64,000 bases of DNA from Micromonospora sediminimaris (GTDB lineage: Bacteria; Actinomycetota; Actinomycetes; Mycobacteriales; Micromonosporaceae). Each line of letters begins with the position of its first letter. Position 1 is the first letter of the stretch. The notes beneath the pieces were generated by a model. It saw nothing but the letters and a program-made list of their open reading frames with translations, had not been told where the DNA came from and did no database searches. Positions 1,822 to 41,571 of this stretch are shown here, one piece after another. The stretch covers positions 124,001 to 188,000 of the forward strand of contig FOLJ01000008.1 in assembly GCA_900112325.1 (NCBI GenBank), written 5' to 3'. The position numbers were made by a program, and so were the translations under genes.

Positions 1822-1881
1822 GTTGATCAAGAAGTTTTGGTCTCGATCCGGCCGGATCGAGACCAAAACTTCTTGATCAAC
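1822..1881. repeat. Perfect 60-bp palindrome between convergent genes
   Basis: Each arm is 30 bases and they meet with no spacer. The left arm begins GTTGATCAAGAAGTTTTGG and ends CGATCCGG at 1851; the right arm is its exact reverse complement. Symmetry stops at 1821/1882. The arms are richer in A/T than the surroundings. The palindrome lies between the cyclophilin terminator and the 3' end of rel. Function unknown: it could terminate rel transcription, bind a protein, or be a mobile palindromic repeat. Confidence 0.95.
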
Positions 1882-33095: not shown

Positions 33096-33989
33096 ATGAC
33101 CAGCGTGCTCCGCCTCGACGGCGTCGACCGCAGCTTCGGCGGTCGCCAGGTACTCAAGGACGTCTCCTTCGACGTCGTCGCCGGCCGGATGACCGGCTTC
33201 GTCGGCGGCAACGGCGCCGGCAAGACCACCACCATGCGGATCATCCTCGGGGTGCTCGCCGCGGACGCCGGCCAGGTGACGTGGCAGGGTGAACCGCTGA
33301 GCCGGGACGCTCGGCGACGCTTCGGGTACATGCCCGAGGAGCGCGGCCTGTACCCGAAGATGAGCGTCCGTGAGCAGGTCACCTACCTGGGTCAGCTGCA
33401 CGGGTTGACCGCCGACGCCGCTCGGCGCGCCACCGACGGGCTGCTGGAGCGGGTCGGACTCGCCGAGCGGGGGAACGACCTGCTGGAGACGCTGTCCCTG
33501 GGCAACCAGCAGCGCGCGCAGATCGCCGCCGCGCTGGTGCACGACCCCGAGGTGCTGGTCCTCGACGAGCCCTTCTCCGGCCTCGATCCGCTGGCCGTCG
33601 ACACGGTTGTCGGCGTGCTGCGGGAGCGGGCGGCGGCCGGGGCTCCGGTGCTCTTCTCCAGCCACCAGCTCGACGTGGTCGAACGGCTCTGCGACGACCT
33701 GGTGATCATCTCGGACGGCTCGATCCGCGCCGCCGGCAGCCGGGAGCAGCTGCGCTCGGCGTACACCACGCCCCGTTTTGAGCTGGTGGTGGAGACCGAC
33801 GCCGGCTGGCTGCGCGACCAGCCCGGGGTGAGCCTGGTGGACCTCGACGGTGCGCGCGCCGTGTTCGACCTGGCCGTCGGCACCGACGAACAGCCCGTGC
33901 TGCGCGCCGCGCTGGAGCGCGGCCCGGTCCGCGCGTTCCGCCCGGTCACCCCCTCCCTCGCCGAGATCTTCCGAGAGGTCGCCAAGTGA
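33096..33989 (+). CDS. ABC transporter ATP-binding protein
   Basis: 297 residues. Walker A GGNGAGKTT, the signature region LSLGNQQRAQ (a variant of LSGGQ), Walker B VLVLDEPFSGLD and the switch His in LFSSHQLDVVERL are present. After about residue 220 comes a C-terminal regulatory tail of about 75 residues. This is the NatA type that pairs with a single permease. The permease overlaps the stop codon (GTGA), so the two are co-translated. The cargo is unknown. Confidence 0.94.
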   Translation: MTSVLRLDGVDRSFGGRQVLKDVSFDVVAGRMTGFVGGNGAGKTTTMRIILGVLAADAGQVTWQGEPLSRDARRRFGYMPEERGLYPKMSVREQVTYLGQLHGLTADAARRATDGLLERVGLAERGNDLLETLSLGNQQRAQIAAALVHDPEVLVLDEPFSGLDPLAVDTVVGVLRERAAAGAPVLFSSHQLDVVERLCDDLVIISDGSIRAAGSREQLRSAYTTPRFELVVETDAGWLRDQPGVSLVDLDGARAVFDLAVGTDEQPVLRAALERGPVRAFRPVTPSLAEIFREVAK

Positions 33990-35047
33990 ACGCCATGCAG
34001 GCCACCCGCCTCGTCGCCGCCCGGGAGATCCGGGTCAAACTGCGCGACCGTACCTTCCTGATCAGCACTGCCGTCTTCCTGCTGATCGCGGCGGCGGCGA
34101 CGATCCTGCCGCCGCTGCTGTCCGGCGGGCCGTCGACGGTGGCCGTGACCGAAGCGGCGGCCGGCCCGTTGCGGGCGGCGGGGCTGGAGGTGCTCGCCGT
34201 ACCCGACGACGCCGCCGCCGAGCAGGCGGTCCGCGACGGCGACGCGGACGCCGCGGTGGTCGCCGGCCCGGCCGTGCTCGCCATGGACGACGCCCCCAAC
34301 GACGTGGTCTCCGCGTTGAGCACCGAGCCGCCGGTCCGGCTGCTGAACCCGGACGCGGTGGACCCGGTGGTGGCCTTCCTGGTGCCGTTCGCCTTCGCCT
34401 TCATCTTCTTCATCACCTCCCAGACGTTCGGGGTGCAGATCGCGCAGAGCATCATCGAGGAGAAGCAGACCCGGATCGTGGAGATCCTCGTCGCCGCGGT
34501 GCCGGTCCGCGCCCTGCTGGCTGGGAAGATGCTCGCCGGTACGATCCTGGCGCTCGGGCAGATCGGCCTGGTGGCCGTGGTCGCGGTGGCCGGCATGGCG
34601 TTCGGCGACAGCGGCGGGCTGCTCTCGCTGCTCGGGCCGGCGATCGGCTGGTTCGTGCCGTTCTTCCTGCTCGGCTTCGTGCTGATCGCGTCGATGTGGG
34701 CGGCGGCCGGTGCGCTTGTCAACCGGCTGGAGGACATCGGTGGCGTGTCGATGCCGGTACAGCTCGCGGTGATGCTGCCGTTCTTCGCGGTGATCTTCCT
34801 CAACGACAACGTCACCGCCATGCGGGTGCTGTCCTACCTGCCATTCTCCTCGCCGACGGCGATGCCGCTGCGGCTGTTCACCGGGGACGCCGCCGGCTGG
34901 GAACTTGTCGTTTCGCTGGCCCTGCTCCTGGTCGCGGCGGCCGGTTTCCTGCTCGCCGGAGCCCGGGTGTACGAGGGTTCGCTGCTGCGCACCAACGGCC
35001 GCACCTCGATCCGCACCGCCTGGCGCGAGCGCGAAACCCTGGGCTGA
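33986..35047 (+). CDS. ABC transporter permease (NatB/ABC-2 type)
   Basis: 353 residues. An N-terminal helix is followed by a large extracytoplasmic loop and about five C-terminal membrane helices (VAFLVPFAFAFIFFITSQTF; TRIVEILVAAVPVRALLAGKML). ABC-2 permeases export drugs, sodium or other substrates. The GTG start overlaps the ATPase stop. Directly after it lie the 41-bp repeat units. Confidence 0.92.
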   Translation: MNAMQATRLVAAREIRVKLRDRTFLISTAVFLLIAAAATILPPLLSGGPSTVAVTEAAAGPLRAAGLEVLAVPDDAAAEQAVRDGDADAAVVAGPAVLAMDDAPNDVVSALSTEPPVRLLNPDAVDPVVAFLVPFAFAFIFFITSQTFGVQIAQSIIEEKQTRIVEILVAAVPVRALLAGKMLAGTILALGQIGLVAVVAVAGMAFGDSGGLLSLLGPAIGWFVPFFLLGFVLIASMWAAAGALVNRLEDIGGVSMPVQLAVMLPFFAVIFLNDNVTAMRVLSYLPFSSPTAMPLRLFTGDAAGWELVVSLALLLVAAAGFLLAGARVYEGSLLRTNGRTSIRTAWRERETLG

Positions 35048-35073: not shown

Positions 35074-35181
35074 GCAGCAGTTTCCCCGAAGTTGCCGCCT
35101 GAGCACCGCGCGATGCAGCAGTATCCCCGAACTTGCTGCCGCAGAGCCGCGCGATGCGGCAGTTTCCCTGAAGTTGCCACC
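35074..35181. repeat. 41-bp tandem repeats (three imperfect copies) at a convergent junction
   Basis: Copies begin at 35074, 35115 and 35156 (last one cut short), period 41 bases. Each opens with a GC(A/G)GCAGT(T/A)TCCCYGAA-type core and a TTGCYGCC-type close, and each core is partly self-complementary (GCAGCA...TGCTGC in the second). A degenerate tail of a further copy precedes 35074. The unit recurs at 39940. Protein function unlikely. Confidence 0.88.
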
Positions 35182-35196
35182 GGCGGGTGCAGACGG

Positions 35197-36885: not shown

Positions 36886-36938
36886 CGCAATCTTGGACAA
36901 ATTCCGTTACGCGCTAGCAGAAACTGTCCAAGATTGCG
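36886..36938. repeat. Inverted repeat with 14-bp arms at a convergent junction
   Basis: The left arm CGCAATCTTGGACA (36886-36899) is the exact reverse complement of TGTCCAAGATTGCG (36925-36938). The 25-base spacer is itself partly self-complementary. It is AT-richer than the surroundings and lies between the SnoaL-like gene and the 3' end of yebC. Confidence 0.9.
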
Positions 36939-39016: not shown

Positions 39017-39868
39017 GTGATGGACGGCGAGTTGGGCGCGTTCCTCCGCAGCCGACGGGAGGCGCTACGGCCCGAGCAGGTGGGGCTACCCACCAACGGC
39101 CGGCGGCGTACGCCCGGCCTGCGGCGTGCGGAGTTGGCCACGTTGGCCCAGGTCAGCGTGGAATACCTGACCCGGCTCGAACAGGGCCGGGACACCCGCC
39201 CGTCACCGGGCATCCTCGCCGCCCTGGCCGAGGCGCTACGCCTCGACGACGCCGACCGGCGGCACCTTCAGCAACTCGCGTCGGTCGACCACCGCCGGCA
39301 ACTGTGCGCGGGTGGGCGGCCGACCGTGTCGCGTACCGTCCGCCCACAGGTCCGGACGCTGCTGGAGGCGCTACGGGACCGGCCGGCGTACCTGATCAAC
39401 CGAATCGGCGACGTGCTGGCCTGGAACGGGCCGTTCGACAGGTTGGCCCGGCCGCTGGGCCTGCTCGATGACGAGCGGCCCAACCTCGTATGGTTCGTTT
39501 TCGCCGACGAACGCGCCCCGGAGCACTTTCCCGACTGGGCCGACCTCGCCGACCAGCAGGTCGCCGACCTGCACCGGCTGCGCGGAGGCGACCCCGCCGC
39601 CGACGCGTTCGCCCAACGGCTCGACCGTACCGTCGGGGAACCGTTCCAGTCCCGGTGGCAGCGCCGACCGGTCGCCGTGCAGCCGAGCGGGGTGCGCTGG
39701 CTGCGGCATCCGGAGGTGGGGCCACTGCGGCTGTCGTACGAGACCCTAGAGCTCGCCGACGACCAGCAGCGACTGGTGGTGCAGCAGCCCACCGACGCGG
39801 AGAGCACCGCGGCGCTGGACCGCCTCCTGGGCCGCCGCCCCGGCAGCCTCCGCTCCGTCGCCGGCTGA
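39017..39868 (+). CDS. XRE-type HTH regulator with MmyB-like ligand-binding domain
   Basis: 283 residues. The N-terminal HTH is PGLRRAELATLAQVSVEYLTRLEQGRD. The larger C-terminal part (from about 105, LRDRPAYLINRIGDVLAWNG) is the MmyB-like domain found in actinobacterial repressors next to redox genes. GTG at 39017 or ATG at 39020 are both possible. It is divergent from the FMN reductase operon and is its likely repressor, sensing an unknown ligand. Confidence 0.92.
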   Translation: MMDGELGAFLRSRREALRPEQVGLPTNGRRRTPGLRRAELATLAQVSVEYLTRLEQGRDTRPSPGILAALAEALRLDDADRRHLQQLASVDHRRQLCAGGRPTVSRTVRPQVRTLLEALRDRPAYLINRIGDVLAWNGPFDRLARPLGLLDDERPNLVWFVFADERAPEHFPDWADLADQQVADLHRLRGGDPAADAFAQRLDRTVGEPFQSRWQRRPVAVQPSGVRWLRHPEVGPLRLSYETLELADDQQRLVVQQPTDAESTAALDRLLGRRPGSLRSVAG

Positions 39869-39939
39869 GGGCTGAGACACAACCACCGCCCCACCACCGC
39901 CCCTCACCGCCGTCGCCGACCCTCACCGCGAAGATCCGA

Positions 39940-40006
39940 GCAGTTTCAGGGATGTTGCTGCCTCGAAGCGAGTCGAGCCAGCAGCATCCCCGATGTTGCT
40001 GCCTCA
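39940..40006. repeat. Second locus of the 41-bp repeat unit (two copies)
   Basis: Copies begin at 39940 (GCAGTTTCAGGGATGTTGC) and 39981 (GCAGCATCCCCGATGTTGC), again 41 bases apart and ending TGCC. It lies between the convergent regulator and pdxT genes. The shared core with 35074-35181 is a TTTC/ATCC centre flanked by GCAG and TTGCTGCC. Confidence 0.85.
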
Positions 40007-40049: not shown

Positions 40050-40655
40050 TCAGGGGGCGGTGCGGACCAGGTCTACGAAGTAGGCGTGCAGGCGGGGATC
40101 GCCGGTGAGTTCCGGGTGGAAGGAGGTGGCCAGCAGGTTGTGCTGGCGTACGGCGACGATCCGGCCGGCGGCCGGTCCGTCGGCCACCGTGCCGAGCACC
40201 TCCACGCCCTCGCCGACCCGCTCGACCCAGGGCGCGCGGATGAAGACCGCGTGCAGCGGCCCACCCGGTACGCCGGTGATCTCCACCGGCGCCTCGAAGG
40301 AGTCGACCTGCCGACCGAACGCGTTGCGGCGGACGGTCATCGCGATGCCGTCGAAGCCGCGCTGATCCGGCCGGCCGTCGAGCACCTCGGTGGCCAACAT
40401 GATCATCCCGGCGCAGGAGCCGTAGACCGGCATGCCGGCGGCGATCCGCTTGTCGATCGGGTCGCGCAGCTCGAAGATGTCGACCAGCTTGCTGATCGTG
40501 GTGGACTCCCCGCCCGGGATGACCAGGCCGTCGACCGCGTCCAGTTCCGCCGGTCGGCGTACCGGACGGGCCTGCGCGCCCGCCGCGGTCAGCGCCGTGA
40601 CGTGTTCGCGGACGTCGCCCTGGAGGGCGAGCACACCGATCACGGGTGCCGCCAC
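40050..40655 (-). CDS. pdxT: Pyridoxal 5'-phosphate synthase glutaminase subunit PdxT
   Basis: 201 residues. It hydrolyses glutamine and supplies ammonia to PdxS. The class I glutaminase residues are present: Cys in [11 protein letters not shown], and His/Glu in [17 protein letters not shown] is the family signature. GTG at 40655 starts one base after the pdxS stop, so translation is coupled. Confidence 0.97.
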
Positions 40656-40656
40656 G

Positions 40657-41571
40657 TCACCAGCCGCGTTCGGCGAGGCGGTGCGGCTGCGGGATGTCGT
40701 CGACGTTGATGCCGACCATCGCCTCGCCGAGGCCACGGGACACCTTGGCCAGCACGTCCGGGTCGTCGTGGAAGGTGGTCGCCTTGACGATCGCGGCGGC
40801 CCGCTGGGCCGGGTTGCCGGACTTGAAGATGCCGGAGCCGACGAAGACCCCCTCGGCGCCGAGCTGCATCATCATCGCCGCGTCGGCCGGGGTGGCGATG
40901 CCACCGGCGGTGAAGAGCACCACCGGCAGCTTGCCGGTCTCGGCGATCTCCTTGACCAGCTCGTACGGCGCCTGCAACTCCTTCGCCGCGACGAACAGCT
41001 CGTCGGCCGGCAGGGACGTCAGGCGGCGGATCTCCTGGCGGATCTTCCGCATGTGGGTGGTGGCGTTGGAGACGTCGCCGGTGCCGGCCTCGCCCTTGGA
41101 GCGGATCATCGCGGCCCCCTCGGTGATCCGACGCAGCGCCTCGCCAAGGTTTGTCGCGCCGCAGACGAACGGCACGGTGAACGCCCACTTGTCGATGTGG
41201 TTGGCGTAGTCAGCCGGGGTGAGCACCTCGGACTCGTCGACGTAGTCGACCCCGAGGGACTGGAGGATCTGCGCCTCGACGAAGTGGCCGATGCGGGCCT
41301 TGGCCATCACCGGGATGGAGACCGCGTTGATGATGCCGTCGATCATGTCGGGGTCGCTCATCCGGGACACCCCACCCTGGGCACGGATGTCCGCGGGTAC
41401 CCGCTCCAGCGCCATCACCGCGACCGCGCCGGCGTCCTCGGCGATCTTGGCCTGCTCGGGGGTGACCACATCCATGATCACACCACCCTTGAGCATCTCG
41501 GCCATGCCGCGCTTCACGCGCGCGGTGCCGACGACCGGGGTGGCGGTGTTCGGGGAAGTCGTCTCGGACAC
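40657..41571 (-). CDS. pdxS: Pyridoxal 5'-phosphate synthase lyase subunit PdxS
   Basis: 304 residues. A (beta/alpha)8 synthase that makes PLP from ribose 5-phosphate, glyceraldehyde 3-phosphate and ammonia. The Lys in [18 protein letters not shown], plus [17 protein letters not shown] and [20 protein letters not shown], are diagnostic. GTG at 41571 has GAGGAGC upstream and gives the usual short N-terminus. It is followed directly by pdxT. Confidence 0.97.

What the first reader, a model, noticed from the sequence alone, without database searches (positions are those of the whole stretch)
35074..35181. 41-bp tandem repeat unit at one convergent junction, related to a second locus
Three imperfect copies have exactly 41-base spacing, each with partly self-complementary GCAGCA/TGCTGC arms. 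Two copies with the same spacing occur at 39940-40006, 4.8 kb away, also between convergent genes. A shared period argues for one family of structured repeats that may act in transcript ends or RNA binding.
Basis: partly seen in the sequence, partly recalled or inferred. Interest (0 to 1): 0.7.

Follow-up and report, generated by a model that had tools for sequence, protein, structure and literature searches.

The report
Twin-palindrome repeats at gene ends
The repeats belong to a previously unnamed family of about fifty palindromic DNA elements in this Micromonospora genome, each built of two palindromes exactly 41 or 42 bases apart and placed mostly where two genes run head-on into each other, probably marking the ends of both transcripts.

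Summary
Three 41-bp units lie at 35074-35182 and two at 39935-40004, both between convergent genes of a Micromonospora. The genome holds about 50 such elements (104 two-strand model hits). The unit is a 25-nt quasi-palindrome (GCA-NNN-TC-NNN-GA-NNN-TGC). Units come in pairs whose centres are 41 bp (21/24) or 42 bp (3/24) apart in any orientation. The pair can fold into one 28-35 bp stem-loop; its arms covary as that long hairpin, more strongly than as small hairpins. Seventeen of 23 mapped elements sit in convergent spacers (p about 1e-10), behind C-rich 3' UTRs. Two close relatives lack the pair at the same junctions; a third shares about half and conserves them (91% identity against 58% in flanks). 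M. lutea has both window elements. The same 41-bp design with different letters occurs in other families of the order. No RAYT transposase, integron integrase or published description was found. Best reading: recently dispersed, bidirectional transcript 3'-end elements, possibly with a sequence-specific partner. RNA action is unproven: no U-tract, no G-U preference. A pair of DNA-protein sites is the main rival.

The parts
35074..35098 (+). unit 1 of the first element (25-nt quasi-palindrome GCAGCAGTTTCCCCGAAGTTGCCGC); with flanks GCTCAGG..CCTGAGC it also folds as a small hairpin
35115..35139 (+). unit 2 of the first element, centre 41 bp from unit 1; shared with Micromonospora lutea
35156..35180 (+). 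unit 3 of the first element, centre 41 bp from unit 2; shared with M. lutea
35074..35182 (.). whole 41-bp array (2.7 copies by TRF) between convergent genes
39935..40004 (.). second element: 70-bp long-hairpin element (R1 match 73.4 bits) made of two inverted units, 10-nt loop
   Evidence: L025:3935-4004
39937..39961 (-). unit 1 of the second element
39978..40002 (+). unit 2 of the second element, centre 41 bp from unit 1
33986..35047 (+). ABC-2 type permease, left convergent neighbour of element 1
   Evidence: PF12698
35197..35835 (-). DUF402 protein, right convergent neighbour of element 1 (start by own gene caller; ORF open to 35895)
39017..39868 (+). MmyB-like HTH regulator, left convergent neighbour of element 2
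40050..40643 (-). PdxT (SNO glutaminase), right convergent neighbour of element 2; followed by pdxS 40657-41571
36886..36938 (.). a different hairpin family (F4, AATCTTGGACA..TGTCCAAGATT) at another convergent junction, between a SnoaL-like gene and yebC
1822..1881 (.). a different hairpin family (F2, GTTGATCAAGAAGTTTTGGTC..) at a convergent junction (G000:C11:125822-125881)

Best explanation
The repeats are members of a dispersed family of about 70-80 bp intergenic elements ('twin palindromes'). Each consists of two 25-nt quasi-palindromic units GCA-NNN-TC-NNN-GA-NNN-TGC with centres 41 or 42 bp apart; the two halves pair into one long stem with a loop of about 10 nt. SHOWN: family, geometry, arm covariation, location at gene 3' ends and mostly between convergent genes, C-rich 3' UTR on each side, patchy gain between species, conservation once shared. 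INFERRED: the element is a shared bidirectional transcript end. Each of the two converging transcripts runs through a C-rich, G-poor (Rho-site-like) leader and then makes the same hairpin, which stops or pauses polymerase and/or protects the 3' end from exonucleases, and shields each gene from antisense read-through. The invariant letters and the fixed 41-bp step suggest that a trans-acting factor also recognises the element. The element is spread by an unidentified mechanism and replaces ordinary terminators at the same junctions.
For: Location: 17 of 23 mapped elements in convergent spacers, p about 1e-10 by length; 39 gene sides facing the element are stop sides, 7 are start sides, median 55 nt from stop. 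Long hairpins as a class occur in 48/187 convergent, 45/580 tandem and 4/236 divergent spacers, 0 in shuffles. UTR before the hairpin has C 0.475/G 0.292 (F2 family 0.60/0.18) against 0.39/0.35 in convergent spacers without a hairpin. Covariation: long hairpin score 0.240 vs 0.150 shuffled, 0/500; small unit hairpins 0.145 vs 0.137, 140/500. In 52 inverted elements the inner helix has z 9.6 and the outer 7.2; unit hairpins 2.8 and 4.0. At the same junctions relatives carry other hairpins or plain terminators, i.e. functional replacement. Shared elements are 91% identical while flanks are 58%. In another family, convergent elements lie 2-4 nt from stop codons (L298, L300).
Against: No transcript data. 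No U-rich tail after the hairpin (T 0.13). On the sense strand of 31 tandem-gene elements G-U pairs (32) are no commoner than A-C mismatches (29), so selection for RNA pairing is not visible. Core triplets of the two units flip independently (52:38:5), unlike the arms. A terminator does not need a 41-bp spacing or internally palindromic arms. Arm covariation can also arise from quasi-palindrome correction during replication.
Confidence: 0.5

Rival explanations
1. A pair of DNA-binding sites. Each unit is a palindromic operator with a 3-bp centre, bound by a dimer; two dimers sit about four helical turns apart on the same face and act as a roadblock, insulator or chromosome organiser between convergent genes.
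For: Spacing is 41 or 42 bp whatever the unit orientation (78 and 17 of 95). Half-site letters C, A, T, C are nearly invariant over lineages. G-U and A-C mismatches are equally common. Core orientation of the two units is independent. The geometry persists in other families with different letters.
Against: The variable arm positions covary between the halves, strongest for the inner helix (0.75, 0.81, 0.92 observed vs 0.38, 0.59, 0.49 expected), which plain operators do not need. No candidate protein is known. Placement next to stop codons is not explained without an added roadblock role.
Confidence: 0.25
2. A selfish palindromic repeat (REP/REPIN- or MITE-like) that is copied by an unidentified enzyme and merely tolerated at gene 3' ends, with no host function.
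For: Copy number varies from 0 to about 50 among Micromonospora genomes and independently of the F2 hairpin family. Elements are absent at the same junctions of G065 and G067. Tandem arrays of 3-4 units occur.
Against: No Y1 transposase in the genome. Shared elements stay 91% identical while flanks fall to 58%, so they are conserved after arrival. Strong preference for convergent spacers, almost none divergent. No match on plasmids or phages.
Confidence: 0.18
3. A folded single-stranded recombination site, built like an integron attC site: two simple sites, an unpaired centre, paired outer and inner boxes and a terminal loop.
For: Same architecture: outer helix, 3-nt centre that is unpaired in direct-orientation elements, inner helix, loop; DNA-like mismatch pattern.
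Against: No integron integrase above the family cut-off in 41 Micromonospora genomes; no gene cassettes; elements lie singly between core genes.
Confidence: 0.04
4. Ordinary unrelated terminators that look alike because of base composition.
For: Many unrelated GC-rich hairpins exist at gene ends here.
Against: Unit hits above score 14: 63 against 1 in reversed sequence; one covariance model finds 104 matches in this genome and up to 78 in others at E<=0.01.
Confidence: 0.02

Closest known systems
REP / BIME / REPIN repeats with RAYT transposases (PMC2817692)
   Same: Many dispersed extragenic palindromes, often as doublets or regular arrays, lineage-specific sequences, suggested roles in termination
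   Different: No GT(A/G)G head; no Y1/IS200-like transposase in this genome; strong bias to convergent spacers; doublets occur in all orientations at a fixed 41/42 bp
Neisseria/Pasteurellaceae uptake-sequence terminators (Kingsford 2007, PMC1852404)
   Same: A repeated sequence whose inverted pairs make hairpins enriched between convergent genes
   Different: Those are 9-11 nt words in 1,000 or more copies with U-tailed terminators; here about 50 copies of a 70-80 bp element, no U-tail, each half itself palindromic, no sign of an uptake role
Intrinsic (Rho-independent) bidirectional terminators
   Same: GC-rich hairpin shortly after stop codons, usable from both sides
   Different: No U-run; conserved sequence and fixed geometry shared by unrelated loci
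Integron attC sites
   Same: Two palindromic simple sites that fold into one hairpin with unpaired centre and terminal loop (comparison from general knowledge)
   Different: No integrase above cut-off, no cassettes

Membership tests
REP/REPIN (RAYT-mobilised) | Y1 (IS200/IS605-type) transposase in the genome | tested here: not met
   PF01797: no match in G000; control genomes ring as expected
REP/REPIN (RAYT-mobilised) | GTAG/GTGG head next to the palindrome | tested here: not met
   Unit consensus GCA-NNN-TC-NNN-GA-NNN-TGC, no such head
REP/REPIN (RAYT-mobilised) | Many extragenic palindromic copies in doublets or arrays | tested here: met
   About 50 elements in G000; pairs at 41/42 bp; arrays of 3-4 units
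Intrinsic terminator | GC-rich hairpin just after the stop codon | tested here: met
   Median 55 nt from stop; 39 stop sides vs 7 start sides
Intrinsic terminator | U-rich run after the hairpin | tested here: not met
   T fraction 0.13 in the 40 nt after F1
Intrinsic terminator | Transcript 3' ends at the site | not testable with these tools
   No RNA data available
Rho-dependent 3' end | C-rich, G-poor stretch upstream of the end | tested here: met
   C 0.475/G 0.292 before F1, controls 0.39/0.35
DUS/USS terminators | Uptake-signal word in high copy (at least about 1,000) and competence | tested here: not met
   About 50 elements per genome; competence not testable
Integron attC | Integron integrase | tested here: not met
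   TIGR02249: 0 of 41 genomes over the cut-off
Rfam RNA families | Match to a curated model | tested here: not met
   No match in the window at gathering thresholds
MITE | Target-site duplication | tested here: inconclusive
   Flanks at element-free orthologous junctions are too rearranged to align

The most novel reading that the evidence does not exclude
A geometry-locked class of twin palindromes in the order Mycobacteriales (order name from general knowledge of GTDB), recognised by an unknown trans-acting factor that ends transcription from both sides (or recombines the folded DNA). The 41/42-bp step and the C-R-NNN-TC half-site persist across families while the remaining letters drift with their factor.
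Probability: 0.35. Interest if true: 0.8.

Novelty: new variant of a known kind. Interest (0 to 1): 0.62.

Why it matters
How high-GC actinobacteria end transcripts without clear U-tailed terminators is poorly understood. Here is a countable, recently spread set of elements at convergent gene ends, with element-free orthologous junctions in sister species as natural controls. The fixed 41-bp step gives a sharp prediction (phasing mutants) that separates RNA-hairpin from DNA-protein action, and the copy-number differences between species could expose the factor or enzyme by gene-presence comparison.

Tried and rejected
Small tandem hairpins as the structural unit: unit-hairpin covariation is no better than shuffles in the own-genome alignment and weaker than the long hairpin in the larger set. 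RAYT/REP: no Y1 transposase. Integron attC: no integrase over cut-off. Plasmid, phage or viral origin: no match. Rfam: no match. A position-weight matrix iterated over the whole sequence drifted into coding DNA and was redone on intergenic DNA with a reversed-sequence control. RNA-strand test by G-U versus A-C: no preference. Literature searches for such repeats in Micromonospora, Salinispora or actinobacteria gave nothing relevant. The junction query covered 17 of the 46 prepared junctions.

Full report
OBSERVATION. The 41-bp repeat is real. TRF reports 35074-35182, period 41, score 148, the highest in the window. Units start at 35074, 35115 and 35156. A degenerate unit pattern has 8 hits in the window against 0.09 expected. 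The second locus has two units whose centres are also 41 bp apart but which are inverted to each other. Both loci lie between convergent genes: ABC-2 permease/DUF402 protein, and MmyB-like regulator/pdxT.

A GENOME-WIDE FAMILY. The window is part of a 6.4 Mb Micromonospora genome (related named records are all Micromonospora). I fetched 1.58 Mb, called genes with a dicodon model and scanned intergenic DNA with a matrix of the unit: at score 14 or more there are 63 hits against 1 in the reversed sequence. Nearly all strong hits come in pairs. The distance between pair centres is 41 bp in 21 cases and 42 bp in 3, with no other distance below 80 bp, whether the units are direct or inverted. A covariance model finds 104 matches in the whole genome; both strands match, so this means about 52 elements.

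ANATOMY. The consensus is an inverted repeat of about 66 nt, GCAACTTC-GGG-GATGTTGCTGCCTC-N10-GAGGCAGCANCATC-CCC-GAAGTTGC. In many relatives it is prolonged to CAAGATCCGCGCAAC...GTTGCGCGGATCTTG. Each half is itself nearly palindromic, so the strand can in principle fold as one long hairpin or as two small ones. On 24 aligned elements the long hairpin covaries (0.240 against 0.150 in shuffles, 0/500) and the two small hairpins do not (0.145 against 0.137, 140/500). On 52 inverted elements from several species the inner helix has z 9.6 and the outer 7.2, with weaker signals for the unit hairpins (2.8 and 4.0). The 3-nt centres behave differently. Their orientation is independent between the two units: 52:38:5 for canonical pair, direct and reversed, where independence predicts about 53:36:6 (my arithmetic; a similar result). 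Half-site positions C, A, T and C are nearly invariant.

WHERE IT SITS. Seventeen of 23 mapped elements are in convergent spacers (p 1.5e-10 by length) and one in a divergent spacer. Facing gene ends are stop codons 39 times and starts 7 times. Long hairpins as a class follow the same rule: 48 of 187 convergent, 45 of 580 tandem and 4 of 236 divergent spacers, 0 in shuffles. They fall into several sequence families: F2 (TTGATCAAGAAGTTT..., fixed length 57-59 nt), F3 (GATCTTGCAGTTTTGGTC), F4 (ATCTTGGACAGTTTCCG, one copy at window 36886-36938) and others. The UTR between stop codon and hairpin is C-rich and G-poor (F1 0.475/0.292; F2 0.60/0.18; controls about 0.39/0.35), and the sequence after the hairpin is the mirror image. 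In 3-kb loci of other genomes, gene calls were less certain and gave 17 convergent, 29 tandem and 7 divergent.

GAIN AND CONSERVATION. At 17 junctions I compared three close Micromonospora genomes. G067 and G065 have no pair at any of the 12-13 junctions found; their spacers are mostly 8-115 bp against 87-372 bp here, and some carry an F3-like hairpin or a plain GC terminator instead. Where G000 and G089 share an element it is 91% identical on average while the 60-bp flanks are 58%. M. lutea has both window elements; at the first locus it aligns to only two of the three units here. Copy number runs from 0 to about 50 among 41 Micromonospora genomes, independently of F2. These are lineage-specific gains that are then conserved.

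WIDER RANGE. The model also hits 18 of 44 genera sampled in the family and a few genomes of other families of the order, but essentially nothing else in a phylum sample (2 of 198 including the own genome). In those other families the letters differ (for example CAACTTC-CCG-GAAGTTG in G196, CGAGATC-GGC-GATCTCG in G289) but the step of about 41 bp, the palindromic units and even 41-bp arrays are kept, and several lie 2-4 nt from convergent stop codons. The model itself favours this spacing, so the unbiased evidence for the spacing is.

MECHANISM. The best-supported role is a shared transcript 3' end for two converging genes. Position, C-rich upstream UTRs, hairpin potential on both strands and replacement by other hairpins at the same junctions all agree. 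What does not fit a simple RNA terminator: no U-tail, no excess of G-U over A-C on the sense strand (32 vs 29), independent core orientation, and a fixed spacing of about four DNA turns. These point to a sequence-specific DNA-level partner, or to a folded DNA intermediate in the spread of the element. Arm covariation is compatible with selection on a hairpin, but quasi-palindrome correction during replication could also produce it. I therefore give the bidirectional transcript end 0.5, paired protein sites 0.25 and a purely selfish repeat 0.18; these are not fully exclusive.

KNOWN KINDS. It resembles REP/REPIN repeats, but the RAYT enzyme is absent and the head motif is missing (REP definition: PMC2817692). 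It resembles Neisseria uptake-sequence terminators in the tail-to-tail bias of inverted pairs (PMC1852404), but not in copy number, size or U-tail. It resembles attC sites in architecture, but no integron integrase passes the cut-off. I found no publication describing it; the library lacks most subscription papers. I file it as a new variant of intergenic palindromic repeats.

Noticed in passing
window 36886-36938: Hairpin of another family (CGCAATCTTGGACA..TGTCCAAGATTGCG) between a convergent SnoaL-like gene and yebC; related copies at G000:C11:55701, C11:100926 and C31:63240.
   Followed up: partly
window 1822-1881: F2 hairpin GTTGATCAAGAAGTTTTGGTC.. at a convergent junction; the family has a near-fixed length of 57-59 nt and 0 to about 38 copies per Micromonospora genome.
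   Followed up: partly
L231:7830-8380: Four F1 elements in a direct array at about 150-170 bp spacing in another Micromonospora (G076:C1).
   Followed up: no
G000:C11:71571, 253160, 269789: A further hairpin family, GCTCTGCTTCAAC...GTTGAAGCAGAGC, in tandem and divergent rather than convergent spacers.
   Followed up: no
L111:646-772 and L097:1053-1174: Arrays of four F1 units at a 39-42 bp step in M. endophytica and Micromonospora sp. PLK6-60.
   Followed up: partly
L116 and L150, downstream of the orthologous genes: Orthologous junctions in other Micromonospora carry different long hairpins that again begin with GATC near the stem base (CTGATCGTCTGCAGTTC.., AAGATCGTGCTTGAAC..), hinting at a wider superfamily.
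   Followed up: no
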